Source: Shimia biformata
GTDB taxonomy: Bacteria > Pseudomonadota > Alphaproteobacteria > Rhodobacterales > Rhodobacteraceae
DNA: 64,000 bases
Direction: 5' to 3'
Assembly (NCBI RefSeq): GCF_016888515.1
Contig: NZ_JAFEJK010000001.1
Coordinates: forward strand, 62,001-126,000
Below are positions 9,090-64,000 of this stretch, piece by piece. The position numbers and the translations under genes were made by a program. Position 1 is the first letter of the stretch. Every line of letters begins with the position of its first letter. The notes under the pieces were generated by a model. That model saw only the letters and a program-made list of their open reading frames with translations, did not search any database and was not told where the DNA came from.

Positions 9090-9126
9090 GGGTTTCTCCG
9101 TGATTCTGGAGCATCATCTAACATAA

Positions 9127-9175
9127 TGGATTTCAGTTCGAAATAGCGGATTTCAAGATAACGGACAAAAATCCG
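9127..9175. promoter_or_regulatory. Candidate operator repeats upstream of kbl-tdh
   Basis: TGGATTTCA (9127-9135) and CGGATTTCA (9147-9155) are direct repeats exactly 20 bp apart, two helical turns. An inverted partial copy, AAATCCG, is at 9169-9175. An 8-mer CAGTTCGA also occurs twice (9134-9141, 9191-9198). The arrangement suits binding of a regulator on one face of the DNA upstream of kbl. The XRE-cupin protein encoded next door is the obvious candidate, but this is inference. Confidence 0.4.
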
Positions 9176-9212
9176 CAATCACGAACACCTCAGTTCGAGC
9201 ATAACACGAAAA

Positions 9213-9225
9213 CCGCTTTTGGCGG
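9213..9225 (-). terminator. Short terminator-like hairpin after the XRE-cupin gene
   Basis: Read on the minus strand, CCGC and GCGG pair around CAAAA and are followed by TTTT. The stem is only four to five base pairs, so termination may be partial. Confidence 0.35.
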
Positions 9226-9228
9226 GGA

Positions 9229-9792
9229 TCAGGCGTTTTTGACGATCAGGAAGACGCGCGCCGGGCCGTCGGGGGACTGGATCGCATGCGGCAGGTCGGC
9301 AGCATATTGTGCCGTGTCACCTTCCGACAAGGTCGTGACAGCCGTGCCGCTGGTCACCTTCACCGTTCCATCCAGAACCGTCAGTTGTTCGGTCGCGCCG
9401 CGTGCATGCGGCTGGCTGGTCAGCGCGCCGCCGGGTTCGAGCCGGATGTCATAGACTTCGTGCCCGCCCGCCTCTTCCGGCGGAGACAGGATACGGATGA
9501 GGCAGCCCTGCCCCATGTTGTCAAACGAAGGCACGTCCGAGTTGCGGATGACCGCGATCTTGTCCACCGGTTCGCTGTCATCAAGGAGACCAGCAAAATC
9601 CACCTGAAGCGCCTTGGTCAGGTTCCAGAGCGTCGCGATTGTCGGGCTTGATTCGCCGCGCTCGATCTGACTGACCATGGAACGGCTGACGCCAGACAGT
9701 TTGGCCACCGCATCAAGCGACAGGCCCTGTTTCTGGCGCGCCTGTTTCAGGCGTGCGGGCAGAAGGCCGAGGATATGGGAATCACTGGACAT
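9229..9792 (-). CDS. XRE-family regulator with C-terminal cupin domain
   Basis: 187 residues. The N-terminal helix-turn-helix spans about residues 11-66 (LKQARQKQGLSLDAVAKLSG, then VSRSMVSQIERG). The C-terminal cupin spans about 110-185 (PHARGATEQLTVLDGTVKVT). XRE-cupin proteins usually sense a small molecule and control a neighbouring catabolic operon; kbl-tdh directly downstream fits. It could be transcribed with kbl or separately: a short GC hairpin with a T-run lies right after its stop. A perfect palindrome sits just upstream of the start. Confidence 0.88.
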   Translation of the reverse strand: MSSDSHILGLLPARLKQARQKQGLSLDAVAKLSGVSRSMVSQIERGESSPTIATLWNLTKALQVDFAGLLDDSEPVDKIAVIRNSDVPSFDNMGQGCLIRILSPPEEAGGHEVYDIRLEPGGALTSQPHARGATEQLTVLDGTVKVTSGTAVTTLSEGDTAQYAADLPHAIQSPDGPARVFLIVKNA

Positions 9793-9806
9793 TTTTCATA
9801 CCTGCC

Positions 9807-9818
9807 CGTGACGTCACG
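9807..9818. promoter_or_regulatory. Perfect 12-bp palindrome upstream of the XRE-cupin gene
   Basis: CGTGACGTCACG is a perfect dyad 15 bases before the start codon at 9792. A second dyad, CGCTGCG-T-CGCAGCG, lies at 9833-9847. Either could be an autoregulatory operator or part of the control region for the divergent thiolase gene. Confidence 0.4.
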
Positions 9819-9928
9819 TCGATGTCAATGCACGCTGCGTCGCAGCGACCATTCGCGCCTTAACAGGCTGACCCCAAAACAGTAGCCTGCGGGCGCTTGA
9901 GTTTTTCTTCACCGAAAAGGACATCCCC

Positions 9929-11104
9929 ATGTCGGATATCGTCATCCTGGGCGGCGCCCGGACTGCCATTGGCACCTTTGGCGGCGCACTTGCCAACACC
10001 CCCCCGATTGAACTGGCCAAGATCGCGTCCGAGGCCGCGATGCAGCGCGCCGGCGTTGAGCCGGGTCAGGTCGGCAACGTGGTCTTTGGCCATGTGATCA
10101 ACACCGAACCACGCGACGCCTACCTGTCGCGCGCCGCCGCTATCGAGGCAGGCATCCCGAATACAACGCCCGCGATGAACGTGAACCGCCTGTGCGGATC
10201 CGGTGCGCAGGCCATCGTCTCGGCCACGCAATCGCTGATGCTGGGCGATGCCGATTTTGCGCTGGCAGGTGGTGCCGAAAGCATGAGCCGTGCGCCCTAT
10301 ATCGTTCCCTCACAGCGTTTTGGCGCAAAAATGGGCGACGTGCAGACGCTGGACATGATGCTGGGCGCACTGACCTGCCCCTTCGGAACCGGGCATATGG
10401 GTGTGACGGCAGAAAACGTCGCCGATGAACATGACGTGAGCCGTGAAGACATGGACGCCTTCTCGGTGACCAGCCAGGAACGCGCGCTGGCAGCGATCGA
10501 AGCGGGCTACTTCAAGGAACAGATCGTCCCGGTGAACGTGAAGGTCCGCCGCGATGTTGTGGCCTTTGACACCGACGAACATCCCAAGGCGTCAACCATG
10601 GAAACGCTGGCCAAACTGCGCCCGGTCTTCCGCAAAGACGGCCGGGTGACGGCGGGCAACGCTTCGGGCATCAATGACGGTGCCGCGGCGATTGTCATGG
10701 CCCGCGCCGAAGCCGCGGAAAAGGCCGGACTGACACCGAAATTCCGCGTTCTGGGTTATGCCCATGCTGGCGTCCGCCCGGAAGTCATGGGCATTGGCCC
10801 GGTTCCGGCGGTCGAGAACCTGCTGGCGCGCACCGGCCTTTCGGTTGGTGACTTCGACGTTATCGAATCCAACGAGGCATTCGCCGCCCAAGCCATTGCC
10901 GTCAACAAGGGCCTTGGCTTGGACACATCGAAAGTGAACCCGAACGGTGGCGCCATTGCCCTTGGTCACCCTGTTGGCGCAACGGGTGCGATCATCACCG
11001 TCAAGACCATGTACGAGCTTGAACGCACCGGCGGATCGAAAGGCCTGATCACCATGTGCATCGGCGGCGGTCAGGGCATCGCCCTTGCCATCGAACGTAT
11101 CTGA
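9929..11104 (+). CDS. Acetyl-CoA acetyltransferase (thiolase)
   Basis: 391 residues, the standard length for thiolase II. It condenses two acetyl-CoA, or cleaves acetoacetyl-CoA or another 3-ketoacyl-CoA. The nucleophile is Cys89 in NRLCGSGAQA. The C-terminal catalytic motifs are GGAIALGHPVGATG (His) and CIGGGQG (Cys). Chain-length specificity cannot be told apart from sequence alone, and PhaA- and BktB-like forms look alike. It is a single-gene transcript with AAAAGGA before the start and a strong terminator after it. Confidence 0.93.
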   Translation: MSDIVILGGARTAIGTFGGALANTPPIELAKIASEAAMQRAGVEPGQVGNVVFGHVINTEPRDAYLSRAAAIEAGIPNTTPAMNVNRLCGSGAQAIVSATQSLMLGDADFALAGGAESMSRAPYIVPSQRFGAKMGDVQTLDMMLGALTCPFGTGHMGVTAENVADEHDVSREDMDAFSVTSQERALAAIEAGYFKEQIVPVNVKVRRDVVAFDTDEHPKASTMETLAKLRPVFRKDGRVTAGNASGINDGAAAIVMARAEAAEKAGLTPKFRVLGYAHAGVRPEVMGIGPVPAVENLLARTGLSVGDFDVIESNEAFAAQAIAVNKGLGLDTSKVNPNGGAIALGHPVGATGAIITVKTMYELERTGGSKGLITMCIGGGQGIALAIERI

Positions 11105-11129
11105 TCCAATTCGGAACAGCTTTGAACCG

Positions 11130-11158
11130 GGGCGCTACCTTCGGGTGGCGCCCTTTTT
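11130..11158 (+). terminator. Rho-independent terminator after the thiolase gene
   Basis: GGGCGCTACC pairs with GGTGGCGCCC (one G-U pair) around a TTCG tetraloop, followed by five T. It lies between the convergent thiolase and pbpC genes. Confidence 0.92.
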
Positions 11159-11161
11159 CGT

Positions 11162-13207
11162 TCAGTCCAGCCAGATCCGGGATCGCGCCGACTGCCCGTT
11201 GGCATCAATCACCGTCAACACGGACGCCCCGCGTCCCAGTCCCGACAGGGTGACCTCCCGGCGGTGAAAGTTGGTCATGACCGGCACACCGTTGGCAAGG
11301 ACCGCAAAGGGCGCGCGACCGTTCCTCAACTTCAAAGTCACCCCCCCTGCCGACCGTTCTATCTCGGCTCCGTCAGGAGGAAAGGTCACTTCCACCGCAT
11401 CCAACGCACGAGCAAAGACGCCAGCGCGGCCCCGGAACTTCTGCAACGGATGAGGAAGGCGGGCAGTGGGCACCAGCAAAGTCTCGGGGGGCGGTGGCCC
11501 GAGCGGGTCGAGCGTGGGTTTCAATCGCTGGAAAACATCGAACAGAACCGGCGCCGCCAACTCTCCGCCAAAGGCCCCCGGCACCGGTGTTCCGTCAGGC
11601 CGTCCAATCCACACCCCGGCCACGTGGCGACCGTCGTACCCAATCGCCCAGGCGTCCCGGTGGCCATAGCTGGTGCCGGTTTTGTAAGACAGACGCAGGT
11701 CGGCGGCCCCCGGCGGTGGCGCCAGTTGTGCCAGCACATGCCCCACTTGCCACGCGGCGGCACGATTCAGAACGCGTTTCCCGTCACCGGATGCCGCGCC
11801 CAGCCGCCAATGCAGATCAACCGACTGCCCCTTGTTGCCTAGCATGGCATAAAGCGTCACCAATTCCTCAAGCGTCATGCCCAACCCACCCAACGAGACC
11901 GCCAGACCCGCCGTGCCGCCTGCCACCGTCGGACTTGTCCCAGCGGCGCGCAAAGCCCCCATCAGTCGGGCCGGGCCAATTTCTTCCGTGAGCAGAACGA
12001 CCGGAATATTGAGCGACTCTCGCAGTGCGTCGGCAACCCTGATCTCTCCTCGGAACCGACCATCGAAGTTCTGTGGCGCATAAGATCCGAAATTCACCGG
12101 AGCATCCAGGATCAGGGTTTCCGGATGAACCAGACCGAGGTCGAACGAAAGCCCATAGACAAGAGGTTTGAGCGTAGACCCCGGCGAGCGCGGCGCGCGG
12201 GTCATGTCGACAAATCCCTGCCGCAGATCGCCACCGTGATAGCCCTGCGATCCGACCGAAGCCAGGATTTCTCCTGTCTTGTGATCGGCAACCACCATGG
12301 CGATCGACAGTCGCTCTTGTTTGCCGCGCAGCGACTGGGTCGCAAGGTTTTCCAGCACCTGTTGCAAGTCGCCGTCCAGCGTCAGCGAATGGACACCTGC
12401 GTCCGGGCGGTCATCGCGGACGCGGTCCGCCATATGCGCGGCCAATGCGGGAAAGGCGCGGCGCGCGACCGGCACAGGCTCGGTCACTGCGGCGGCGACA
12501 TCTCCGGCACTCAGGATACCCGCGGCCTGCGCCCGTTGAAGAACACGACTCCGCGCCATGTCCGCAACCTCGCGCGACACGTCGGGACGGCGCGTTTCGG
12601 GGCTTTGTGGCAGGGCAACCAGCAGGGCCGCCTGCGCCGGGGTCAGACGTCCCGGTTCCTTGCCGAACCACGAAAGCGTCGCAGCGCGGATGCCTTCCAG
12701 GTTGCCGCCATACGGTGCATGGGTCAGATAAAGCGACAGGATCTCAGGCTTGGTCAGCCGCCGTTCCAGCGCCAGTGCAACACGGACCTGCCGTAGCTTT
12801 CCTGCCCAGCGCCCCGTGGTCCCGTCTTCCATCAACCGAGCGACCTGCATCGTCAGGGTCGACCCGCCTGACACCACACGACCATTGCGAACCGCCTGCA
12901 ACACAGCCCGCCCCATTGCAATGGGATCAACTCCGCTGTGACTGCAGAAACGGCGGTCTTCATAGGCGATCAGCATTTCGACATAACGGGGATCGACCGC
13001 ATCCGGCCGGGCGCCTAGTCGCCAGAGACCGTCCGCCACCGTATAGGCCCGCAGAAGATTGCCGTTCCTGTCCCGCACTTCGACCGAGGTTTCGGCAAGA
13101 AGCGGCGGCAGGTCCGTTGCGGCAATCCAGTCGTCGATCCCATCACGCAACAGTGCCCCGCCCCACAGCAGCAGGGTCAGGGCAAAAAGGGCGCGTGCGG
13201 GCTTCAC
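11162..13207 (-). CDS. pbpC: Penicillin-binding protein 1C (bifunctional peptidoglycan synthase)
   Basis: 681 residues. An N-terminal membrane anchor (about residues 5-20) is followed by a family 51 glycosyltransferase domain (catalytic Glu83 in AYEDRRF; GGSTLTMQVARL) and a transpeptidase domain (Ser344 in SPGSTLKP; KTG in SYKTGTSYGHRDAW). A C-terminal PBP_C-type beta domain closes the protein. The start codon is GTG, 7 bases after the alpha-2-macroglobulin stop, so the two are coupled. This gene pair is a known arrangement in which PBP1C is thought to repair cell wall after breaches guarded by the macroglobulin. Confidence 0.95.
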   Translation of the reverse strand: MKPARALFALTLLLWGGALLRDGIDDWIAATDLPPLLAETSVEVRDRNGNLLRAYTVADGLWRLGARPDAVDPRYVEMLIAYEDRRFCSHSGVDPIAMGRAVLQAVRNGRVVSGGSTLTMQVARLMEDGTTGRWAGKLRQVRVALALERRLTKPEILSLYLTHAPYGGNLEGIRAATLSWFGKEPGRLTPAQAALLVALPQSPETRRPDVSREVADMARSRVLQRAQAAGILSAGDVAAAVTEPVPVARRAFPALAAHMADRVRDDRPDAGVHSLTLDGDLQQVLENLATQSLRGKQERLSIAMVVADHKTGEILASVGSQGYHGGDLRQGFVDMTRAPRSPGSTLKPLVYGLSFDLGLVHPETLILDAPVNFGSYAPQNFDGRFRGEIRVADALRESLNIPVVLLTEEIGPARLMGALRAAGTSPTVAGGTAGLAVSLGGLGMTLEELVTLYAMLGNKGQSVDLHWRLGAASGDGKRVLNRAAAWQVGHVLAQLAPPPGAADLRLSYKTGTSYGHRDAWAIGYDGRHVAGVWIGRPDGTPVPGAFGGELAAPVLFDVFQRLKPTLDPLGPPPPETLLVPTARLPHPLQKFRGRAGVFARALDAVEVTFPPDGAEIERSAGGVTLKLRNGRAPFAVLANGVPVMTNFHRREVTLSGLGRGASVLTVIDANGQSARSRIWLD

Positions 13208-13214
13208 GCCGAAC

Positions 13215-16200
13215 TCACTCTGTTACGGTGATCCGGCCGCTATCGGTGCGGGCGCGGAACTGCGGGCGATACATGTCCTCGACCGAAGCCGCGGGGTGAT
13301 GGAAGCTGCCGGGGCTGACCGCGCGCACGATATAGGCAAGCTGGAACGGTTTGTCTCCGCGCCAGTCGACGGCCGCCAGGAACCGGTCCGACCGGAACTC
13401 GGTAAAGGTCGCGCTCGACAGTTTCAGCCAGTTCAGTTCATCCACGTCCCCTGTCGACAACAGGTTGGGATTGTCGATCTCCAACCCTGCGGGAAGCGGG
13501 TCATTGACCATCAGTCGCGCACCGGTTTTGCCGAAAGGCTCGACCTTGAGAACCACCACCATCCGATCCCCGGTCCTGACACTGTCGGCGGCCACTTCAA
13601 CCCCAGACATGTCATAGTAGCGGCGAGAGATGGCATAGCCGTTACCGCCCTTCTGAACCTTGTAGTCAGGCACGCCGATCGTGGTAATTGTCAGATCCGT
13701 CGCAGTGTCGCTGGTATTGCGGATATCCAGCGGCACCAGGCTGGCATCATCCGCCAATGCCCGGACCAGCGGGCCTTCGACAGGCGCTCCGTTGACGGAA
13801 ATTTGCCCCATCGAACTGTCGTCAAGCAACGCGTGAGCCGCAATAAGCGACCAAGCCGATTCCTGTGTCGACAGCCCGCGCCCCGGCCCGGTCAGTCTCT
13901 GCACAAGCCCGCCCCGGTCAACCGCATCTGACCCACTTTCGACCGCCAGCGTCAGTACTGCTGCGCTGTCGCGCAACGCGGTGCCATAGTCGACGCGCCA
14001 GATCGGTTTCGACTCGTCAATACGCGCATTCAGAAGCGCTTGCGCTCGGGCGAACATGCGATCGGCGCGGGTCTGGTCGCCATAGGATGCCAGTGCCGCA
14101 CCCAGCTGGGCTGCCGCCAGCGGAGTCGAAAACGCCTCGGCCTTTACATCGGCATAATACCGCAGATCCCCCATGTTGGCCGCGCCTTCCCGCGCCAGCA
14201 CCAGCAGCGCATAGGCGATATCCTCGCCACCCTCGTCGAAATCGGGGGCATAGTTGATACGGTTCCGAAGGTTATCCATGGCCTGCCGAAAAGCGATTTG
14301 CGGGACGTCATAGCCCTTGGCTCGCGCCCGGCTGAGAAAGTCGCTGACATAGGCGTCCAGCCAGAAATCACCGCTGTCAGCATACCACAGGCCAAAGGCA
14401 CCATTGCTGGCCTGGCGGGTCAATACACGGGCAATGGCCTGGTCGATACGCTCAGCCACCTTGGCGCCGGATGCCAGCCCCAACGCCTGGGCCACAGTGT
14501 CGAAATAGAGAAGCGGCATCGCCTTTGACGTGACCTGCTCGGTGCAGCCATAGGGATAGCGATCCAGCACCGCCAACAATCCCGGCGCATCAAACCGCGC
14601 CAACGCTCCGGTCGACACGATGGCCGAGCCGGACCCGGCCCGGAGATCGGCAAACAGGTTGTCGTCCAAACGGAACGTGTCGCCCGACGCCAGCGTCAAC
14701 CGCTGAGTGGTCGACACCTCGGGATCATTGGCGCGCACCGGCAACAACAGGTCCTTGACCAATTGCTTGCCATCCGGCGTGGTCAGCGCGATGCGCACAG
14801 CATAGTCGCCGACATCCGGCGCGGTGATTGGCACGGACAGACGCACGGTTCCCTGAGCGCCAAGCTCTACACCTGACGGAATGGCGCCATTGGCAAAAGC
14901 AACCCCGCCTGAAACGTCCAGCCCCATGCGCCCGGTCGGACCTTCGGCATGGACGATCTCAAGCAGCATCCGGCTTTGGTCCCCCGGCGCAAGGAAGCGC
15001 GGCAGGCTGGCCGTGACCACTACCGGATCGCGCACAAGCACGTCGGCCTCCGCCTGGCCGACCCCGGTCGGACTCCAGGCAATGGCCATCAGCCGCACGG
15101 TGCCATTGAACTGCGGAATGTCGAAACTGACCCTTGCTTTTCCGTCCACACCGACCTCAACCGGGCCTTTAAAGAAGGCGACCAGTTCTTCGGTTGGCGG
15201 GGGCGAGTCAAAGCGGCTGCCCGAGGCCGCATCACCGCCCGAGCGGATCGCCCCCGTCGCGCCGTTCATACCGTCAATCAGACGGCCATAGATGTCGCGG
15301 ATTTCCATACCCAGCCGCCGTTGGCCGAAATAGTGACCCGACGGGTCAGGGCTTTGGAATCCGGTCAGGTTCAGAATGCCTACATCGACCGCCGCCAGCG
15401 TGACATAGGCGGTTTCGCCCGCCGTGATCCCGTCAACAGTTAGCGAGACATCCAGCACCCCGCGCGGTGCAATCTTCTGCGGCGCATCCAGCGTCACCGA
15501 AAGGGCGCTCGCGCCGGGGTCGACGCTGGCATAGCTCAGGCCCAGCGCCCGCCCCGGATTGCGGCCAGCAGGTTCATCCATAGGCCGGATCACCGAGGCG
15601 GTGACGTAGGCACCCGCGCCCCAGTCATCGGTAACCTCAAGCGGGATCAGGTTCTCGCCCTCCACGACTTCGACAGCTTTCATCGCAATCAACCGGTTCG
15701 ACATGACCTGAACCAGCGCGGTGCCTGCATTACGTGGCACGATGCGCAGCATTGCGGTGTCGCCGCTATGATAGGCGGGCTTGTCCAACGACAATTCAAG
15801 CGTGTCAGGCGTATCACTCGCATCGGCCGGTGCATACCAGCCGGCATAAAAATCGGTAGACGCGGCGACGTAGTCACCGTCGATCCGTTCGACCACGATC
15901 TCGTACTGGCCCCATTCAACCGGGGCCGAAACCGCGACAGGATCACCGGTCAGCATGACTTCACCCGTGGCAACGCGGCTGCGCTGCGTCACCGGCTCCC
16001 AGTTCCAGTCGCCATAGAGCATGTACCATTGGTAATGCGTCCGAACCCGGTTCACGGTCCATTTGACCTTCATCGATGCGGGGTTCAAATCCCGGTCCAG
16101 CGCGGCGATGCGGAAGGTCGCCTCGGCCCCTTCGGGCACGACGCCATCAAACATCGGTCGGATCCCGATCAGGTCGCCCGCAGGTGCGACCGGGTGCGAC

Positions 16201-55854: not shown

Positions 55855-55918
55855 CTGCCACTTTGTCGTCGTCGCAAAACGCGCTAGACTCGGTGACAAA
55901 AGAGATTTGAGGCTACCG

Positions 55919-57256
55919 ATGCGACCCCTTCTGCCGGCACTTGTCCTGACGGTTGGTCTTGCGCCCTTGGCGGCGCTTGCAAACCCTCCGCAATCCTCGC
56001 TGCGGCCCACGCTGCGCCCCTCTCCGGTTGCAACCATCGCGACCAAGGCGTCTGCAACATTCGATTCGCAGCGCCCGGTCCTGCGCCCCGAAACGCTTGA
56101 GGCTATCACCCTGGCGCCGGAACCGGCGGCGGGCAACCTGGGCTTTCAACGATGGATTCGCTCGTTCCGTGGTCGCGCCGTACAGCGCGGCATCAGCCCA
56201 ACAGTCTTCGACCGTGCCTTTCAGGGTGTGAAGTACAACGCCGACGTGATCCAGAAGGACCGCAACCAGTCCGAGTTCACCAAGACCCTGTGGGACTACC
56301 TTGACAGTGCCGCTTCCGACACACGCGTAAAGAACGGCAAGGCCGCACTGCGCAAACATGACCGTGTTCTCAGCCAGATCGAGCGCAAATACGGCGTCGA
56401 CAAAGAGGTCGTGACCGCCGTCTGGGGTCTGGAAAGCGCCTATGGCACCTATCGCGGCGATACACCTGTGATCGAGGCACTGGCAACGCTGGCTTATGAC
56501 GGGCGGCGTGGGCGATTCTTTGAACAACAATTGATGGCCGCGCTCAAGATCCTGCAATCCGGTGACACCACGCCGCGTAATATGAAGGGCAGTTGGGCGG
56601 GCGCTATGGGGCACACCCAGTTCATCCCAACTTCGTATCTTGCCTTTGCGGTGGACTTCACCGGCGATGGCAAACGTGACATCTGGTCGGAAAACCCGGC
56701 GGACGCGCTGGCCTCGACCGCGGCCTACCTTGCGAAATCGGGGTGGGTGAAAGGTCAGCCATGGGGGGTCGAGGTAAAGATCCCGCGCGGCTTTGACTAT
56801 TCCCTGTCCAATCGCAAGATCACCAAAATGCCACGCGACTGGGCCAGAATGGGTGTGGTCGGCATGGACGGTCGTGCGGTTCCAAATTATGGCTCGGCCT
56901 CGGTTCTGTTGCCTGCAGGCGCACGCGGCGCGGCCTTCATGATCTTCAAGAACTTCGCCGTGATCGAACGCTATAACACTGCGGACGCCTATGTGATCGG
57001 CGTCGGGCACCTGAGCGACCGGATCAAGGGCAAAGGCAAGATCAAGGGCGACTGGCCGCGCGGGGACCGGGCGTTGACGTTCAACGAACGCAAGGAATTG
57101 CAGCGCCGCCTGACCAAGGCCGGATTCGACACCAAGAAAGTCGACGGCAAGATCGGGCCTCTGACGATTGACGCAGTGCGCCGTTACCAGCGGTCGATCG
57201 GGATGGAGCCGGACGGCTATGCCTCGCTTGCCATCCTGCAACGGCTGCGCGGCTGA
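55919..57256 (+). CDS. Lytic murein transglycosylase, MltB-like, with peptidoglycan-binding domain
   Basis: 445 residues. Signal peptide (about 1-22) followed by a proline-rich linker (to about 70), then the SLT fold with catalytic Glu172 in VWGLESAYGTYRGD and the MltB pattern SWAGAMGHTQFIPTSYL. A C-terminal PG_binding_1 domain spans about 385-443 (LQRRLTKAGFDTKKVDGKIG). It cleaves the MurNAc-GlcNAc bond with anhydro formation. Its end is 9 bases from the convergent CHAT gene. Confidence 0.93.
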   Translation: MRPLLPALVLTVGLAPLAALANPPQSSLRPTLRPSPVATIATKASATFDSQRPVLRPETLEAITLAPEPAAGNLGFQRWIRSFRGRAVQRGISPTVFDRAFQGVKYNADVIQKDRNQSEFTKTLWDYLDSAASDTRVKNGKAALRKHDRVLSQIERKYGVDKEVVTAVWGLESAYGTYRGDTPVIEALATLAYDGRRGRFFEQQLMAALKILQSGDTTPRNMKGSWAGAMGHTQFIPTSYLAFAVDFTGDGKRDIWSENPADALASTAAYLAKSGWVKGQPWGVEVKIPRGFDYSLSNRKITKMPRDWARMGVVGMDGRAVPNYGSASVLLPAGARGAAFMIFKNFAVIERYNTADAYVIGVGHLSDRIKGKGKIKGDWPRGDRALTFNERKELQRRLTKAGFDTKKVDGKIGPLTIDAVRRYQRSIGMEPDGYASLAILQRLRG

Positions 57257-57265
57257 CCTGACCCG

Positions 57266-58969
57266 CTAGCCCTCCCCAACCAGCACGAAAGGCGCCCAGT
57301 AGCGGGGATGGGTGTGACGCGGGTCGTCGTCATTCATCAGCTTCAGGATCGACTGGCGCAGCGCCTCTCCACGAGATGTGCCATTGGCCATCTCGCCCAC
57401 CATGCCGGTGGTCAGAACTGACGTCGCATAGTCATCGACCGGCCAATGTGACACCAGGATCGACCGCGCGCCGGCATAAATAAAGGCGCGGGCCAGACCG
57501 GACAGCCCCTCGGCCCCCGGTGTGCCGTCGCTGCCTGCGGTGTTGCAGGCCGACAGGATGATCAGCTTGGCCGACAGCTTCAGTTCCGCCGCCTCAGACG
57601 CGGTCAGAAGGGCGTCGTCGTCTTCGGACGGAGTTTCTGGCGGGGTAAAGACAAGCGCGGGTTCCTCAAGCCCATCAAGCCCGCCGGCCAACAAACCGTG
57701 GGTGGCAAATGCCAGGATTTCCGCGCCCGACAGGTCGGCCTTCTTGACTGCGGTTTCGCTGGCGGCGGCACCAAGATAGAGCGCCTCGTCCCCGACCCCT
57801 GTCAGTTGCGCAAGCCGCCGCAGCTCGGTCCGGGTGTTGGGCAGTTGCGCCAGCCGCGCGACCTCGGACACTTTTTCAAACACGCCGCGCCCATGAAACC
57901 CGGCCTGTTCCTCGATCATTCCGGTCGCCTCACCCGGTGCCACCTCGCGGTAGCGGAAGATCGGATCACCAAAGCCGACGAAAGGCTGCGACGTCCCGCC
58001 CGTGGGCAGGTTGGCCGCGGATCGCCTGAGCGCCCGCAGGGATGAGACGTTGGGCAAGGTCGTCAACGCGTAGCGCCGGATCAGCCAGTCGGTGTCGCGC
58101 AATGCGTCGGCATTGTTGTTTTCACCCTCGGGCGCATCCCCCACGAGCACCGCCAGCGGTAGCGATGTCAGCGGCCCGTCGACTACCGTTATCAGGTGGC
58201 GGGCATCGCCAAAGACGTGTTCCAGCGGCTTCAGGAATTGCACATAGAGTTCGTGGGCAAGGTGGCGGTCAAACTCGTCCACGCTGGCCGAAATGTCGTC
58301 ATCCAGCGCCGCTGCTGATCGGTTGGCGGACGTGACATCCAGCATCTGCCGCAACAGCTTGACCTTCGACGCAATCTCGGACTCCGCCATGTAGACGACT
58401 GTCCAGTCGGCGGAATCTTTGCTGATCGCCCAGACATATGTTTCGTAGAACCCGGTCAGTGTCAGGATCAATGCCTCGTCCTCGCCCAGCGCATCCTGCA
58501 CTTCGGCGCGGGTCATGGGGCGCGGGTTGGTCAGTTCCTTGAAACTGGGAGATTCCTCTTCGATCTCGCGGTCGAGCCGGTCGATTTCGGCCCGTGTAGC
58601 GTCCATCCGGGCCTTGATCGTTTCGATCGTCACCTCTGCCTTGCGACCGCTCTGCCCCACGGCTTCCGAGAGTATCGTCTGATCTTCCTTCTGCCGGTCA
58701 GTCATGTCCTGCCGCCGCCGCAACAACGCGGCCAAGCGGGGATTTCCGGCCTCCTGCCGCAGCGCCGCCTGTTGCAGCGCCTTCGCTGCAACTGAAGATT
58801 TGCCACGCTGCACCATGAAGAAAACGTCGTCCCGAATGCCTTCGGGGGTGAGTTCCGGCTGTGAATTGGCCCATGCAAGGGCGGGCCAGATCAACAAGAT
58901 CAGGGCCCGGAGGAGGACACCGGGCCCCGAGAGGCGCTGCGCACAGCCTATCTTGGGAATGTGCGCCAT
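57266..58969 (-). CDS. Exported CHAT-domain cysteine protease
   Basis: 567 residues. A hydrophobic segment near the N-terminus (about residues 19-33, ending AWA) is a likely signal peptide. A helical coiled-coil region spans about 60-145. The CHAT domain (about 290-567) has the His-Cys dyad: His424 in FATHGLLAGG and Cys475 in LSACNTAG, followed by EGLSGLARAFIYAG and SHWPVDD. CHAT is the caspase-related fold found with TPR proteins. TPR units are absent in this protein but occur in the neighbour. Starts 13 bases after the PPC gene stop. Confidence 0.92.
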   Translation of the reverse strand: MAHIPKIGCAQRLSGPGVLLRALILLIWPALAWANSQPELTPEGIRDDVFFMVQRGKSSVAAKALQQAALRQEAGNPRLAALLRRRQDMTDRQKEDQTILSEAVGQSGRKAEVTIETIKARMDATRAEIDRLDREIEEESPSFKELTNPRPMTRAEVQDALGEDEALILTLTGFYETYVWAISKDSADWTVVYMAESEIASKVKLLRQMLDVTSANRSAAALDDDISASVDEFDRHLAHELYVQFLKPLEHVFGDARHLITVVDGPLTSLPLAVLVGDAPEGENNNADALRDTDWLIRRYALTTLPNVSSLRALRRSAANLPTGGTSQPFVGFGDPIFRYREVAPGEATGMIEEQAGFHGRGVFEKVSEVARLAQLPNTRTELRRLAQLTGVGDEALYLGAAASETAVKKADLSGAEILAFATHGLLAGGLDGLEEPALVFTPPETPSEDDDALLTASEAAELKLSAKLIILSACNTAGSDGTPGAEGLSGLARAFIYAGARSILVSHWPVDDYATSVLTTGMVGEMANGTSRGEALRQSILKLMNDDDPRHTHPRYWAPFVLVGEG

Positions 58970-58982
58970 GGGGAGTGCCGCC

Positions 58983-59693
58983 TCAGTTCGTCAGGATGTA
59001 ATAGCTGTTGCGGATACGGCCCATGTTCTTCACGCCAATGAAGAAATACCCATCCCACGCAGGGGTCCACGAGCAATAAAGCTTGTCGGAATAGCTGCGA
59101 TCCAGGCACATTACGTTGCCATTTTCATCGGTCACGACCAGGTCCAGATCGGCGTCTCCGTCACCGATAATGGCAAGCTCGGCCAGGCGCCCACCATAGA
59201 AGGGCACCTTGAAGATATCCGTCTTGCCCGCCCGCAGGCGTGACAGAGTTCTGGACGCCCCACCGATCCGGCCGCGGGATCCTTCGGCTTCGACGTCCTC
59301 GATCAGACCCAATAGCGCCTCGTCACCTGCGGCATACTCCTTGGCCGCGGCAAGCATGGCGACAGCGTCGGCGGGAATGTCCTTGCCCTCGCCTTCTTCG
59401 ACTCCGTCGTGGCCTTCGACGTCCTTGGTTTCCTTGTCGCGTTCGACGTCTTCGATGCCCAGCGACATCATCACCTGCGCTGCGGCCAGCGCCGCGACCG
59501 CATTCTTGTTGGCCACCGCATAGGCGAACATGTCATGCGCCATGGCTGCCTGAGCCACCGCACCGCCATCGCCATCTGCCATCGCCATGGCGTTTTCGCC
59601 GCTCTTGTCTTCAGAGGCCATCGTCGCCGGGGCCGAAACCGCGATCAGCGCGGTGGCGCACATCAACGAGGCAATCAGTTTACGAGTGATCAT
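58983..59693 (-). CDS. Exported PPC-domain protein with acidic linker
   Basis: 236 residues. A signal peptide (to about residue 28, PATMAS) and an alanine-rich helical part (40-80) lead to a strongly acidic linker (81-107, EDVERDKETKDVEGHDGVEE). A pre-peptidase C-terminal (PPC)-like beta domain (about 155-236) has the pattern FKVPFYGG, DADLDLVVTDENGN, DGYFFIGVKN and two Cys (196, 207) that could form a disulfide. PPC domains usually accompany secreted proteases. Start at the ATG at 59693 with AAAAGGA. Upstream of the CHAT gene. Confidence 0.8.
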   Translation of the reverse strand: MITRKLIASLMCATALIAVSAPATMASEDKSGENAMAMADGDGGAVAQAAMAHDMFAYAVANKNAVAALAAAQVMMSLGIEDVERDKETKDVEGHDGVEEGEGKDIPADAVAMLAAAKEYAAGDEALLGLIEDVEAEGSRGRIGGASRTLSRLRAGKTDIFKVPFYGGRLAELAIIGDGDADLDLVVTDENGNVMCLDRSYSDKLYCSWTPAWDGYFFIGVKNMGRIRNSYYILTN

Positions 59694-59785
59694 GTGCAAT
59701 CCTTTTGAGAAGTATTTGAATGTCCTTATGCGTTAACAATGGCGATTTGCCTTACGTCAATCCACTGTTTTTTGGTGACAAATCC

Positions 59786-59791
59786 TGTCAA
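59786..59791 (-). promoter_or_regulatory. Possible -35 element in the TPR-PPC gap
   Basis: On the minus strand a TTGACA hexamer lies here, in the 132-base gap between the TPR gene stop and the PPC gene start. A second TTGACG at 59755-59760 has a weak GTTAAC 17 bases on. Either could give the PPC-CHAT pair its own transcript. Confidence 0.3.
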
Positions 59792-59825
59792 AAACGGCCT
59801 GGAGGGTCAGGTTTTACAGACCATT

Positions 59826-62507
59826 TCACTGACTTCCGGCTTCACGCAGTTCCCGCGCAAGCGCCCAGCCGAACACGGCCTGATTCACCACCCTGTCCCG
59901 GTCGGCCTGTTGATTGCGCACGATTTCCCCGGCCAGCGCGGCCTCTTCCTGGAATGAAAAGAAGATGTCGTTGGACCGCAGCATATTCACGTAAGCGCGG
60001 TCATATTTTTCCATGTCGAAACTCTGGTTGGCGTCCTGCGTCAACAGCCAGGACATTGGCACACCGGCGCGGAAACCTTCATTGGGCAGCTGCTTCATGG
60101 CCTTTTCATAGGCGTCCAGCGACTCTTCATGACGGCCGTTCCTGGCCAAAGCATATGCATAGTTTGCAAAAAGCATCATCCCGTCGTTGGGCAGCAGCCG
60201 GGCCACAAGTTTCTCGTCACGGGCCACTGGGTCGATGGCGGCCAAGGCCTCGGCGTTTTTGTTCTGGGCCAGCATCGTGTTGACGTAGTTGCCCAGAATG
60301 TCGCGCCAAAGGCGCGGGGCATAGCTGTCGTAATCGATTTCCTCAAACGCCTTCGAGACCATCGTTGTAGCCAGGTCGGTCTGGCCCAGGAACCACAGCG
60401 AATAGGCCTGCTGAACTTCAAGGAAGCCGACCACATCCCGCCGGTGCCAGGGTGAAGCGCGGTATTGCCGGGTAGCAAGCTGGATCAGGTCCAGGGCATC
60501 CTGATAAAAGCCGCGTTCGGACAGGGCGAAAGCATAGCTGAGCCGCGCAACCACCTGCCATTGGTGGTCATCCGGCAGCATTCGGCTAAGGGCACGGATA
60601 TGAAAAGCCTGGGCCTGAAACGCGCGCTCGTTTGACAAGATGCCGGTGGCAATATTGGCGCGGAACACCGGCAGAAGCGCCATAAGCATCGGCGGCGCCT
60701 TGGCTTGCTCTGCCCAGTCCCGGAAGGAAAAGTAAAACTCATCTGCCTCGGCCTGAGTCAGTATCTCGTATATCCCGGACCCAATCAGGGTCATGCTGGT
60801 GAACATGCCCCAAGGCGACAGATCATCACCCGGATCATGGGCCGCAAAATACGCGGTGTGGATTTCGCGCCGCTCGGCATCGTTTTCCAGCGCGCCTGCA
60901 TAGGCAAAATGCAAAACATGGACCAGTGTCCGCACCTCATCCGTCAGATCGGTGCGCCGCAAAAGACGATCAAGATACGGCTTGCCCCTTTCGGGCTCGT
61001 ATTCGCGTGACCAGACATGGGCGATCAACGAGGCGATATCAAACCAGGGAGAGTTGGCCGGAATGCTTTTTGGCCCAACCGCCCGCGCCATGTTGCGGGC
61101 CTTGTCCAGCGCGCCTTCTGCCGGGCCGATCTCTCCAAGAAGCGCATGGTAGAGCCCACGATTGAGCGCCACCAGCAGCTTGTCAGACGTTTTGCGTTTT
61201 TCGTATGCTGCCAGTTCACGCCCGATCCAGATATAGCGCCCTTCGAAAAACGCCTTCAACAGGGGCGCGCCGTCTTCGGTCAGCACCAGATCGCCCCCTG
61301 CCTTTCCCAACCCCAGTTCGTCGGCATAGGGATAGGTCTCGGGGTCGATCCGGGTCAGGTCCATCAGGTTTCGTATCTTGAGCGCATCTTCATGGTTCGC
61401 CGAGCGCACCTCGCGGATGGCGGCATAGGACCGCTGGATCGCCTCTTGCGCCATGGCCTGATCACCTGTGGCACGGCCGACATAGTAAATGTCACGCTCG
61501 ATGAACCCGGTAACAAGCGCGAAATCCCGCCCCTTGTCTTCCAGCTCTTTCAATGCCTCATTTGCCATGCGCAGGGCAGTGTCGTAGTCCTTTTGCCGCA
61601 GTTTCAGCGTAATCATGTTCTGACGGGCAAAGTAGTATTTCACCGAACCCGGCGCGGATGTCGCCAGCCTGTCCAGGTTCTTCTGCAAAAGAGGCTCACC
61701 CCGCGCAAAGTCGCGGTTTTCAACGAAAATGCGCCCCAGTACCTCTTCGGCGAGCGTCAGGTTGGTGTCTGCGGCCCGCTCGTCACTGGTAATCAGATCG
61801 TGCAGGAAGCGGGCATCGGTGACCAGTTTCTTTGAATACCTGTCGGTGCGCCGCTGCGCGATCAGATCCAGGCGCCACAGATCGACATATTGCCCGAATG
61901 AACCCTTTTCCTCTTCCAGGAAATTATCCAGCAGCCCCGCCCGCAATTCGAACTCATCAGCGGCGCGCGTCCGTGATGTGGCATAAGCCAGCCAGACCGC
62001 GCCTTCGCGTTTCCAGTTTTGCGATGTTTTTTCGCCAGCGTCCTGATGAAGCGCACGGAACACGACTTCGGCTTCTTCGTATTTCTTTTGCCGGTAAAGC
62101 ACCTTGCCCAGCAGGACCATGGCCTCGGACCGGGTGTTGTTGTCCCGGTGATCGGGCGTGTCCATCGCGCGCACGATGGGCACCAGCCATTTTTCGGCGG
62201 TGACATAATCCTTTTCCCGCCGTGCGAGTTTCGCCAGTTTTAGGTCGGGCCACCAGAAGGACGGGTGACCAGCAAACCAATCCTCATAGTTGTTGTGTTC
62301 TTCCTCTAGCGCATGGGCAAGATCCCAGGCCTCTTTCTTGCGGCCTTGGTTGTAAAGCTTGTCGACTTCGCCCAGCTTGCCAGCAAACACCAAGAGGTAA
62401 TCGGCTGGGGACTCAAAGCTGGTTTCCTGAGCCGTGACAGGCGGCGCGACCATCATCAGCGACAGGAACGCCGCCGATTTCAGGAATGTCGCCGCCCATC
62501 GTTTCAT
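59826..62507 (-). CDS. Exported 893-residue helical-repeat (TPR-like) protein
   Basis: Signal peptide (about 1-26, ending PVTAQE). The rest is almost wholly alpha-helical repeats with TPR-like spacing, clear at LGKVLYRQKKYEEAEVVFRA, RQNMITLKLRQKDYDTALRM and YALARNGRHEESLDAYEKAM, and more degenerate in between. No enzymatic motif was seen. It probably acts as scaffold or regulator for the CHAT and trypsin-like proteases encoded next to it; in other bacteria TPR and CHAT often lie in one chain. Starts 13 bases after the trypsin-like gene stop. Confidence 0.85.
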   Translation of the reverse strand: MKRWAATFLKSAAFLSLMMVAPPVTAQETSFESPADYLLVFAGKLGEVDKLYNQGRKKEAWDLAHALEEEHNNYEDWFAGHPSFWWPDLKLAKLARREKDYVTAEKWLVPIVRAMDTPDHRDNNTRSEAMVLLGKVLYRQKKYEEAEVVFRALHQDAGEKTSQNWKREGAVWLAYATSRTRAADEFELRAGLLDNFLEEEKGSFGQYVDLWRLDLIAQRRTDRYSKKLVTDARFLHDLITSDERAADTNLTLAEEVLGRIFVENRDFARGEPLLQKNLDRLATSAPGSVKYYFARQNMITLKLRQKDYDTALRMANEALKELEDKGRDFALVTGFIERDIYYVGRATGDQAMAQEAIQRSYAAIREVRSANHEDALKIRNLMDLTRIDPETYPYADELGLGKAGGDLVLTEDGAPLLKAFFEGRYIWIGRELAAYEKRKTSDKLLVALNRGLYHALLGEIGPAEGALDKARNMARAVGPKSIPANSPWFDIASLIAHVWSREYEPERGKPYLDRLLRRTDLTDEVRTLVHVLHFAYAGALENDAERREIHTAYFAAHDPGDDLSPWGMFTSMTLIGSGIYEILTQAEADEFYFSFRDWAEQAKAPPMLMALLPVFRANIATGILSNERAFQAQAFHIRALSRMLPDDHQWQVVARLSYAFALSERGFYQDALDLIQLATRQYRASPWHRRDVVGFLEVQQAYSLWFLGQTDLATTMVSKAFEEIDYDSYAPRLWRDILGNYVNTMLAQNKNAEALAAIDPVARDEKLVARLLPNDGMMLFANYAYALARNGRHEESLDAYEKAMKQLPNEGFRAGVPMSWLLTQDANQSFDMEKYDRAYVNMLRSNDIFFSFQEEAALAGEIVRNQQADRDRVVNQAVFGWALARELREAGSQ

Positions 62508-62520
62508 TTGGGGCCCCGCC

Positions 62521-63585
62521 TTAGTTCGCGTTCACGGTGGCGTTCAGCCAGTCCACATAATTCGACACACGGGTATAGGCCGAGAAAAGCGCGTTTTCAG
62601 CGCAGGACTTGCCCGAGGACGACGACATGCCCCAGCTGACAACGCCGGCCTGGATAAACTTGCCCTCACCCAGCGGCACCACCAACGGCCCGCCCGAGTC
62701 ACCGTTGCACGAGGTCTTGCCGCCCTCGAACGTGCCCGAACACAACATGTTTTCCGACATCGGAGCGCGCACGTATTTGATCAGTTCAGCCCAGACAAGT
62801 TCTGCCTCGGCCTGTTTCAGGCCAAATGCCTGTGCCGCCAGCCCAATGCCCTGCGCGGCGGATTTCGCGCGCGCTTCCAGCATCATCTGGTTGCACATGT
62901 CGCGGCTCATCATCTGGATCTCGGCTTCGCGCATAACTGGTGTCCGCTCACCGCCCTCAACCAGCCCCCAGCCGGTCACTACGGTTTTCACACCTGGCTG
63001 GTCCAGCATGTCGCCAAACTGTGCATCGGGAACCTTGATCGTCTCAAAGGGAACGCGGGGCGCGCGAGCAAGCTTGATAAGCGCGATGTCATTGTCGAAC
63101 TCGGTCCCGACATAGTCAGGATACCGATAGACCGCCTCAACCGGGATCACGTCTCCTTTGGCCGGGTCAATCTCGACCGACCCAAGATAGACCGAGATCG
63201 CCTGCGGGTTCAGGTCGCGGTAAACACCGTTCTTGTCTGCCATGTGGACACAATGCGCGGCAGTCAGAACCCAGGTGTCCAGCACCATTGACCCACCGCA
63301 GAACTGACTATTGTAGTCGACCGCGCCGCCATTGATCAGCAACGCCACCTGCCATGGCCATTCGCCTTCATCCGCTGGCTGGCCACCGATTACACGGGCA
63401 CCGCTGTCGTCGGCCTTCTCGGCGGCCATCGCCGAGCGCGCGGCCTTTTTGCCTGCTTCTGCAAACGCAAAGGGCGAAGCCACGTCCGGCGCAATTTCCG
63501 GCATGGCAAGCTCTTGTGCACTGGCCGGGAATGCCAGCCCCGCCGCCAATACCAGGCCAGCTGCAATCTGGGTAATTTGGTTCAT
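62521..63585 (-). CDS. Exported S1-family (trypsin-fold) serine protease zymogen
   Basis: 354 residues. Signal peptide (to about 23), a propeptide (24-64) ending in Arg64, then the mature N-terminus VIGG (65-68). Catalytic triad: His111 (TAAHC), Asp166 (DNDIALI), Ser297 (GDSGGP). The residue six before Ser297, which sets trypsin specificity, is Thr291 instead of Asp, so it should not cut after Arg or Lys itself. The Cys231-Cys282 loop is about 50 residues against about 13 in typical enzymes. Start at MNQITQIAAG, where GGAG sits nine bases upstream. Confidence 0.92.
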   Translation of the reverse strand: MNQITQIAAGLVLAAGLAFPASAQELAMPEIAPDVASPFAFAEAGKKAARSAMAAEKADDSGARVIGGQPADEGEWPWQVALLINGGAVDYNSQFCGGSMVLDTWVLTAAHCVHMADKNGVYRDLNPQAISVYLGSVEIDPAKGDVIPVEAVYRYPDYVGTEFDNDIALIKLARAPRVPFETIKVPDAQFGDMLDQPGVKTVVTGWGLVEGGERTPVMREAEIQMMSRDMCNQMMLEARAKSAAQGIGLAAQAFGLKQAEAELVWAELIKYVRAPMSENMLCSGTFEGGKTSCNGDSGGPLVVPLGEGKFIQAGVVSWGMSSSSGKSCAENALFSAYTRVSNYVDWLNATVNAN

Positions 63586-63600
63586 ACAGAAATACTCCAT

Positions 63601-64000
63601 TCAGTCGGTTTTGGTTGCTGGCTGGGGGGTAATGATCAGATCCAGCCGTTTCATATCAAGTGCGGCCCCTTTCGGAGCCAGGGAAAACCCACGGGATGAC
63701 GCGCCGGGGTCGGCCGCGCCCGTAAGGAATGACGTCAGACCAGTCGGGTCTGCCCCACGTGTCGCTCCGCCATCAGCCAGCGCGGTCAGAACGGTACGAG
63801 GGGCACCAGGATTGGCAGGCACCGACAGAACCAAAAGCGACTCGGACAGGGCACGCCCATCCTGCGCGGCATTCACAAGGCGGAAACGCAGGGTTTTTTC
63901 CTCGCCGCTGGTCAGCCGATTCGAAAGGTTGTTCTGCGGCCAGAGCGCGGAAATGCCGCCTTCCGCATCCAGATAGAGCACGGTGACATCCTGCGCCGAA
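63601..64000 (-). CDS. C-terminal part of a DUF4384-like protein (cut by window end)
   Basis: The last 132 codons of a gene continuing past position 64000. The visible part begins DVTVLYLDAEGGISALWPQ and includes RLTSGEEKTLRF, a pattern recalled from DUF4384 domains, which are attached to caspase-like and kinase proteins in bacteria. Stop 15 bases before the trypsin-like start, so it is the upstream member of the same operon. The catalytic domain, if any, lies outside the window. Confidence 0.55.
   Translation of the reverse strand, partial: SAQDVTVLYLDAEGGISALWPQNNLSNRLTSGEEKTLRFRLVNAAQDGRALSESLLVLSVPANPGAPRTVLTALADGGATRGADPTGLTSFLTGAADPGASSRGFSLAPKGAALDMKRLDLIITPQPATKTD

What the first reader, a model, noticed from the sequence alone, without database searches (positions are those of the whole stretch)
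57266..64000. Exported protease operon: DUF4384-like, trypsin-like, TPR, PPC and CHAT genes
Seen: five consecutive minus-strand genes with gaps of 15, 13, 132 and 13 bases; the four complete products all have export signals; two carry intact but unrelated protease centres (His111/Asp166/Ser297 and His424/Cys475); one is a long TPR-like scaffold and one a PPC-domain protein with an acidic linker. Known: CHAT and caspase-like domains often pair with TPR proteins and trypsin-fold proteases in bacteria, and DUF4384 often accompanies caspase-like or kinase domains. Inferred: a periplasmic or secreted proteolytic cascade in which one protease activates another on a TPR scaffold, possibly a defence, envelope-stress or cell-death module. 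I know no described system with exactly this set.
Basis: partly seen in the sequence, partly recalled or inferred. Interest (0 to 1): 0.82.

Follow-up and report, generated by a model that had tools for sequence, protein, structure and literature searches.

The report
Exported caspase–trypsin protease cascade locus
These genes are one end of a ten-gene locus, recurring in many Rhodobacteraceae, in which exported caspase-like and trypsin-fold proteases sit beside their own sensor and regulator; it looks like a protease cascade working outside the cytoplasm, and I found no description of it.

Summary
The fifth gene, cut by the window edge, is a complete 683-aa exported caspase-family protease (CASP1), as predicted; DUF4384 is not supported. 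Upstream lie a histidine kinase, an OmpR-type regulator and an HtrA-like protease, then, divergently, a second PPC-like protein (PPC2) and a second caspase (CASP2). In 80 related loci the order CASP2-PPC2 | HtrA-RR-HK-(patatin lipoprotein)-CASP1-TRY recurs, whole or without patatin, in 55; the trypsin-fold TRY directly follows CASP1 in 70. Catalytic residues are conserved almost throughout. TRY is a zymogen with Arg/Lys at its activation site but no Asp189 (69 of 69 each), so it probably cannot activate itself there; the neighbouring metacaspase-like CASP1 fits as activator. Best reading: a two-component-controlled extracytoplasmic protease cascade, sometimes with a lipase. Its trigger and outcome are unknown. 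Nine paper searches found no description.

The parts
57266..58969 (-). CHAT: exported CHAT-family caspase-fold protease, 567 aa, His424/Cys475 (optional member)
   Evidence: Pfam CHAT 2e-57; His and Cys in 19 of 20 aligned rows, the other row has gaps there
58983..59699 (-). PPC1: small exported protein, helical part + acidic linker + PPC/GOLD-like beta sandwich
   Evidence: alignment; model mean pLDDT 81.6; Foldseek GOLD, subtilase and collagenase domains
59771..59792 (+). operator-like box TTTGGTGACAAATCCTGTCAAA, upstream of PPC1 inside the 132-bp gap
   Evidence: 15.5 bits, the only hit >=10 bits in the window
59826..62507 (-). TPR: exported 893-aa TPR protein (optional member)
   Evidence: TPR_12 8.2e-15; relatives near 18 of 80 CASP1 loci
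62521..63600 (-). TRY: exported trypsin-fold zymogen, 359 aa; activation site Arg69|Val70; Thr296 at the Asp189 position
   Evidence: Pfam Trypsin 2.1e-46; residues in 69 rows; tryptase alignment
63601..64000 (-). CASP1, 3' part of a 683-aa exported caspase; the whole gene is L002:6602-8653 (L002 position + 56999 = window scale). The rest of the locus lies beyond the window, in L002 coordinates: weaker box before CASP1 8702-8723 -; HK 8737-10095 -; RR 10092-10802 -; HTRA 10809-12092 -; box TCACGTGAAAAACCCTGTCATG 12151-12172 +; PPC2 12245-12874 + (longest ORF from 12155); CASP2 12884-14992 +
   Evidence: ORFs; CASP1 Peptidase_C14 1.8e-23, HK HATPase_c 1.1e-20, RR Trans_reg_C 3.1e-23, HTRA Trypsin_2 1.8e-28 and PDZ_6 1.5e-10, CASP2 Peptidase_C14 1.2e-16; PPC2 aligned with PPC1; boxes 28.8 bits and 13.2 bits

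Best explanation
The locus encodes an extracytoplasmic protease cascade under its own two-component control. Shown from sequence: two metacaspase-like proteases, a trypsin-fold zymogen, an HtrA-like protease and PPC-like proteins with export signals (by eye), plus a kinase/regulator pair, kept together across many genera; a shared palindromic box in the divergent promoter and, in part of the loci, before CASP1 and PPC1. Inferred: the kinase senses an envelope insult and the regulator binds the box, raising production. The caspases, expected to cut after Arg/Lys, cut TRY at [Arg/Lys]69-Val70 and so activate it; TRY, which lacks an acidic S1 pocket, then cuts different substrates. PPC2, and less clearly PPC1, are cut at a basic hinge between helical part and beta domain and act as substrates, adaptors or released signals. 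The patatin lipoprotein, where present, is a lipid-cleaving effector at the membrane. HtrA acts as sensor or brake; TPR and CHAT are optional extensions. The outcome is probably envelope remodelling or self-damage after attack or stress.
For: Caspase in the cut gene and a second one upstream. Locus order over 80 loci; eight-gene core in 43 of 80 and the same without PAT in 12 of 80; TRY directly after CASP1 in 70 of 80. CASP1 His/Cys 71 of 71, CASP2 54 of 54, TRY triad 69 of 69, HTRA triad 56 of 58 rows. TRY: residue before the mature N-terminus basic in 69 of 69 (K 41, R 28); Asp189 position never Asp (T 62, G 3, S 2, L 1, V 1); 226 position Ser in 69 of 69, numbering from the tryptase alignment. 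CASP1 resembles metacaspases by profile and fold, with Asp52 and Asp180 in 71 of 71. PPC2 [KR]142-Gly143 in 58 of 58 rows, Val144 in 57, in a lower-confidence linker between helix and strand of the PPC1 model. Box at 58 of 62 HTRA and 58 of 60 PPC2 genes (largely the training set) and, outside training, before 20 of 80 CASP1 and 8 of 37 PPC1 genes; 106 hits in 1.54 Mb against a mean of 0.25 (maximum 2) for 20 column-permuted matrices. Co-occurrence in 292 order genomes: CASP1 16, TRY 15, both 15; CASP2 17, PAT 16; all four 14, including separated parts: own PAT 780 kb away and genus g15 with CASP1-TRY apart from the rest.
Against: No cleavage, binding or phenotype is shown. A basic residue before the mature N-terminus is usual for S1A zymogens (recalled), so the caspase is only one candidate activator; HtrA or another protease could do it. 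Export was judged by eye; the scripted tests failed their control. The PPC1 hinge is less conserved than that of PPC2: Arg142 in 26 and Gly143 in 25 of 35 rows. PAT is missing from 28 of 80 loci, some of them short contigs, and was not found in 16 searched genomes whose locus lacks it, a set without positive control, so the lipase is not essential. Most CASP1 and PPC1 genes have no box at 15 bits: 60 of 80 and 29 of 37; 15 of 106 hits lay in none of the promoter windows. The separated CASP1 of genus g15 and the own PAT have no box. G206 keeps PAT-HK-RR-HTRA-PPC2 without either caspase or TRY. The CASP1 model is of modest confidence (pLDDT 70.2, pTM 0.51). HTRA of G146 lost His and Ser, so its catalysis is not always needed.
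Confidence: 0.5

Rival explanations
1. A non-lethal envelope-stress and protein-quality operon: the kinase/regulator and HtrA sense misfolded envelope proteins, and the caspases, TRY and PPC proteins are parallel house-cleaning or processing factors, not a sequential cascade.
For: HtrA and the two-component pair are near most CASP1 genes (HTRA 62, HK 70, RR 66 of 80); the kinase's NCBIfam matches include several envelope-stress kinases (CpxA, BaeS), below their cut-offs.
Against: A zymogen without Asp189 next to two metacaspase-like proteases suggests sequence rather than parallel action; paralogous PPC proteins and an optional lipase are unusual for quality control (judgement).
Confidence: 0.25
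2. A defence or altruistic-death module: attack on the envelope (phage, predator, toxin delivery) triggers the cascade and the patatin lipase, killing the cell.
For: Patchy spread, 16 of 292 order genomes; decayed copies in G202 and G242; carriage on ~80-kb plasmids; caspases, trypsin and a hydrolase recall known conflict systems (passages; CHAT and patatin parts recalled). In PADLOC both caspases match a generic caspase profile and HTRA an RT-protease profile through its protease domain (1.1e-15).
Against: No further defence family above weak E-values in the eight proteins scanned; an own regulator and HtrA are atypical for phage defence (judgement); PAT missing in 28 of 80 loci; one scan of the viral contigs gave 5 weak caspase-domain relatives, with no other system gene in the 5-10 kb fetched; the phage record collection was not searched.
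Confidence: 0.15
3. A secreted attack or nutrition set aimed at other cells (for example algae): exported proteases and a phospholipase act outside the cell.
For: Complete locus on a plasmid of Pseudosulfitobacter; the 15 plasmid records listed for this genus name diatoms or sea water as source.
Against: PAT looks like a lipoprotein, so likely cell-bound: lipobox-like pattern in 47 of 52, 48 of 51 and 35 of 51 by three loose patterns; some carriers come from ponds, lakes or reactors by their titles; no secretion-system family among the ten own-locus proteins.
Confidence: 0.07
4. A chance neighbourhood of unrelated exported enzymes.
For: None beyond the usual presence of proteases in genomes.
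Against: Order kept in dozens of loci, shared promoter boxes, co-occurrence across genomes.
Confidence: 0.02

Closest known systems
Orthocaspases / metacaspases of Alphaproteobacteria (PMC3501461 and PMC6426788; abstracts and passages seen)
   Same: Caspase-family (C14) fold, His/Cys dyad; orthocaspases are described as cutting after positively charged residues; [quoted passage not shown]
   Different: Here caspases, trypsin, CHAT and TPR are separate exported proteins with a two-component pair and HtrA; dyads are intact; no DUF4384 hit. The main text of the 2012 paper has 0 occurrences of 'rhodobacter', 'trypsin' or 'patatin'.
NTP-dependent conflict systems with trypsin and caspase peptidases (Kaur 2020, PMC7159879; passages seen)
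   Same: Several peptidases in one system; caspase paired with a neighbouring alpha/beta-hydrolase gene; comparison with eukaryotic peptidase cascades already made there.
   Different: Those depend on MoxR/vWA or iSTAND NTPase components; none was found among the ten own-locus proteins.
Type III-E CRISPR TPR-CHAT (Craspase) and protease-activated bacterial gasdermins (recalled)
   Same: CHAT with TPR; protease activation of an effector.
   Different: No CRISPR or gasdermin match in the eight proteins scanned against PADLOC; TPR and CHAT are separate here and carry export signals.
Cpx / DegS-type envelope-stress systems (recalled)
   Same: Sensor kinase, OmpR-type regulator, HtrA/PDZ protease.
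   Different: Addition of two caspases, a trypsin-fold zymogen and PPC proteins; kinase, regulator and HtrA score below the cut-offs of the NCBIfam rows shown.

Membership tests
C14 caspase family, metacaspase/orthocaspase-like (CASP1, CASP2) | Caspase-domain profile above curated cut-off | tested here: met
   83.9 and 61.6 bits, cut-off 21.4; 15 of 15 CASP1 relatives match
C14 caspase family, metacaspase/orthocaspase-like (CASP1, CASP2) | His/Cys dyad | tested here: met
   CASP1 71 of 71, CASP2 54 of 54 full-length rows, own included
C14 caspase family, metacaspase/orthocaspase-like (CASP1, CASP2) | Acidic S1 residues and cutting after Arg/Lys | tested here: inconclusive
   Asp at both positions in 71 of 71 CASP1 rows; their role in MCA2 is recalled; specificity needs an assay
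C14 caspase family, metacaspase/orthocaspase-like (CASP1, CASP2) | Calcium dependence and self-processing | not testable with these tools
   needs protein
DUF4384 | Profile match in CASP1 | tested here: not met
   0 of 15 members at E<=5
S1A trypsin-fold peptidase (TRY) | Profile, catalytic triad, zymogen site | tested here: met
   2.1e-46; triad and basic P1 69 of 69 rows
S1A with trypsin specificity | Asp189 | tested here: not met
   0 of 69 Asp; position read from the alignment
CHAT peptidase | Profile and His/Cys | tested here: met
   2e-57; 19 of 20 rows, one with gaps
HtrA/DegP | Protease domain + PDZ | tested here: met
   Trypsin_2 and PDZ hits
HtrA/DegP | Do-family (TIGR02037) score above cut-off | tested here: not met
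   201.4 bits, cut-off 416.2; so not called DegP
PPC domain (PPC1, PPC2) | Pfam profile | tested here: not met
   no family at E<=0.1
PPC domain (PPC1, PPC2) | PPC/GOLD-like fold | tested here: met
   PPC1 only: Foldseek GOLD 2.5e-6, collagenase domain 2.3e-5
NTP-dependent ternary conflict system | MoxR/vWA or STAND NTPase in the locus | tested here: not met
   none among ten own-locus proteins
Craspase | CRISPR effector plus fused TPR-CHAT | tested here: not met
   no CRISPR family among the own-locus proteins scanned; TPR and CHAT are separate genes

The most novel reading that the evidence does not exclude
Rhodobacteraceae have a zymogen cascade outside the cytoplasm, comparable in logic to complement or clotting: a sensor kinase sets the stock, an Arg/Lys caspase fires a chymotrypsin-like zymogen, PPC proteins are cut to release a signal, and a lipoprotein lipase is the optional executioner.
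Probability: 0.35. Interest if true: 0.9.

Novelty: new variant of a known kind. Interest (0 to 1): 0.75.

Why it matters
What bacterial caspase relatives do is largely open. Here is a compact, widely recurring, exported set with its own regulator pair, a visible zymogen site and a promoter box, in culturable and partly plasmid-borne strains. That turns the question 'what activates, and what is cut by, a bacterial caspase' into a few simple assays, and, if the cascade is real, moves bacterial caspase signalling outside the cytoplasm.

Tried and rejected
Selenocysteine idea: three g15 CASP1 copies were flagged with an in-frame TGA; their open frames end normally and the catalytic Cys is present. 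DUF4384: no profile support. TPR as marker of the system: it diverges too fast, 2 of 292 genomes; the caspase was used instead. PAT moved elsewhere in loci that lack it: true for the own genome, but 0 of 16 other searched genomes; the tool warned that this set had no positive control, and L121 was not held. Viral origin: one scan of viral contigs gave 5 weak caspase-domain relatives, no other system gene in the stretches fetched. Signal-peptide scripts: rejected because the cytoplasmic regulator scored positive in 54 of 66 and 32 of 66. One near-match of the box at C10:818817 lies in an era/recO-like region (gene names recalled) and was taken as chance; seven more matches with 2 mismatches were not followed.

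Rows dropped: short or cut members (TRY 2 of 70, CASP1 10 of 80, CASP2 8 of 61, HTRA 5 of 62, CHAT 3 of 22, PAT 0 of 52), own copy added except for PAT; PPC rows under 180 aa (number not printed). In one search one of 58 promoter regions (over 900 bases) was left out. In one search G133 was not counted as CASP1 because its hit is the CASP2 locus. Only the best 80 of 184 relatives were returned, and records near the own genome may be left out there. Papers: nine searches, of which listings and abstract starts were seen; passages read in PMC6426788, PMC7159879, PMC3501461 and PMC8195603. None seen describes this locus; the library lacks most subscription journals and bioRxiv.


Full report
CHECK. 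The five genes are at the stated places and strand. CHAT, trypsin and TPR are confirmed by Pfam. The PPC-like protein has no Pfam hit at E<=0.1, but its model (mean pLDDT 81.6) has four helices after the signal region and then a beta-rich domain that Foldseek matches to GOLD, subtilase and collagenase-type domains. Reading on, the cut gene is a 683-aa protein with an N-terminal export signal (by eye) and a caspase domain, followed upstream by a histidine kinase, a response regulator and an HtrA-like PDZ protease, and then, divergent, a second PPC-like protein and a second caspase. DUF4384 was not found in any of 15 relatives.

CONSERVATION. In 292 genomes of the order, CASP1 was found in 16 (a 17th hit, G133, is the CASP2 locus), TRY in 15, all of them among the 16; CASP2 in 17 and PAT in 16; all four in 14. 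Nominal overlap probabilities are about 5e-20 or smaller, but the genomes are related and most of the genes are neighbours, so separated cases matter more: in genus g15 CASP1-TRY lies apart from the HtrA-RR-HK-PPC2-CASP2 group, and in the own genome the patatin lipoprotein is 780 kb from the locus (Patatin 8.9e-16). Against this, G206 keeps PAT-HK-RR-HTRA-PPC2 without either caspase or TRY, G290 has a CASP2-like gene alone in its short contig, and PAT was not found in 16 searched genomes whose locus lacks it.

A scan of species genomes with the CASP1 alignment gave 184 relatives; the best 80 were fetched, and their titles name Rhodobacteraceae or Rhodobacterales members or, in two cases, only Pseudomonadota. 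Within about 10 kb: HK 70, TRY 70, RR 66, HTRA 62, CASP2 61, PPC2 60, PAT 52, PPC1 37, CHAT 20, TPR 18 of 80; short contigs make these lower bounds. The full eight-gene core is in 43 of 80, and the same without PAT in 12 of 80; the own order CASP1-TRY-TPR-PPC1-CHAT is in 4 of 80 (L069, L072, L073, L094). The set also lies on plasmids: 49 plasmid records match CASP1, 46 of them Pseudosulfitobacter, and one of 79.7 kb was read gene by gene: all eleven families are there, with two unrelated genes between PAT and CASP1. A distant cousin in another family of the class (G474) has kinase, regulator, PPC-like proteins, a caspase and a TPR-CHAT protein in a row, without TRY, PAT or HTRA matches in the 16 kb fetched.

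ANATOMY OF THE CASCADE. Catalytic residues are kept: CASP1 71 of 71, CASP2 54 of 54, TRY 69 of 69, CHAT 19 of 20 (one row with gaps), HTRA 56 of 58. The CASP1 family profile matches metacaspase-1 and MCA2 (2.1e-24 to 3.6e-21), and the CASP1 model, of modest confidence, matches metacaspases by fold. TRY has the classic zymogen form: alignments to mature chains begin at Val70, the residue before it is Arg or Lys in 69 of 69, and position 189 is never Asp. So TRY probably does not cut after Arg/Lys and would need another enzyme to cut there; a metacaspase-type enzyme next door suits, since orthocaspases are described as cutting after positively charged residues (abstract of PMC6426788, seen). A basic residue at this site is usual in S1A zymogens (recalled), so only the combination is suggestive. 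PPC2 has [Lys/Arg]142-Gly in 58 of 58 rows and Val144 in 57; PPC1 has Arg142 in 26 of 35. The matching stretch of the PPC1 model lies between the last helix and the next strand, where confidence dips to 66: a candidate cut site, inferred.

REGULATION. A motif search in 57 HTRA/PPC2 promoters found one box, consensus TCACATGACAAAnnCCGTCATG with an inverted repeat. Scanned over 1.54 Mb it gives 106 hits at 15 bits against a mean of 0.25 for 20 column-permuted matrices: at 58 of 62 HTRA and 58 of 60 PPC2 genes (largely the training set), and, not in the training set, before 20 of 80 CASP1 and 8 of 37 PPC1 genes, with a few at CHAT (2), RR (1) and PAT (1) and 15 in none of the windows. In the own locus the three best hits lie before HTRA/PPC2 (28.8 bits), PPC1 (15.5; window 59771-59792) and CASP1 (13.2). 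A pattern written to fit the own box has one perfect match, one match with 1 mismatch and seven with 2 in the own genome, against none for the reversed control. That the locus's own regulator binds it is inferred. The separated g15 CASP1 and the own PAT have no box.

MEANING. The evidence for one functional unit is strong; for a sequential cascade moderate; for its purpose weak. I favour an extracytoplasmic protease cascade that answers an envelope insult, with the lipase as an optional effector. Nine paper searches and passages of four papers showed no description of this locus; earlier surveys noted alphaproteobacterial metacaspase operons in general and trypsin-caspase-DUF4384 fusions.

Noticed in passing
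L046 (G202), L050 and L055 (G242): Decayed copies of the locus: caspase, HtrA, kinase or CHAT genes broken into pieces while neighbours remain.
   Followed up: partly
L005:18256-19605 (G146): HtrA-like protein has lost its catalytic His and Ser; 2 of 58 HTRA rows differ at each of the three triad positions.
   Followed up: partly
L172:452-12066 (G474): Distant alphaproteobacterial cousin: kinase, regulator, PPC-like proteins, caspase, TPR-CHAT in one row, no trypsin match.
   Followed up: partly
L171 (NZ_CP054608.1): Complete system on a 79.7-kb plasmid of Pseudosulfitobacter pseudonitzschiae, with RepB/ParB-type genes and another CHAT gene next to it.
   Followed up: partly
window 62521-63600: TRY carries an insertion of about 45 residues between Cys236 and Cys287, present in 14 of 14 aligned members; possible cofactor site.
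   Followed up: no
L056:928-5411, L057:1913-6386: In G255 and G195 CASP2 is followed by CHAT, a 490-aa protein (sub-threshold TPR matches in the one scanned) and a CHAT protein of about 1000 aa (TPR-CHAT in the one scanned).
   Followed up: partly
window 55907-57256: Convergent lytic transglycosylase (SLT_2, 7e-114) ends 9 bp from the CHAT gene.
   Followed up: no
L067:9148-10608 (G000:C10 about 914 kb): The own genome's patatin lipoprotein lies away from the locus, without the box and with no other system gene in the 20 kb fetched.
   Followed up: yes
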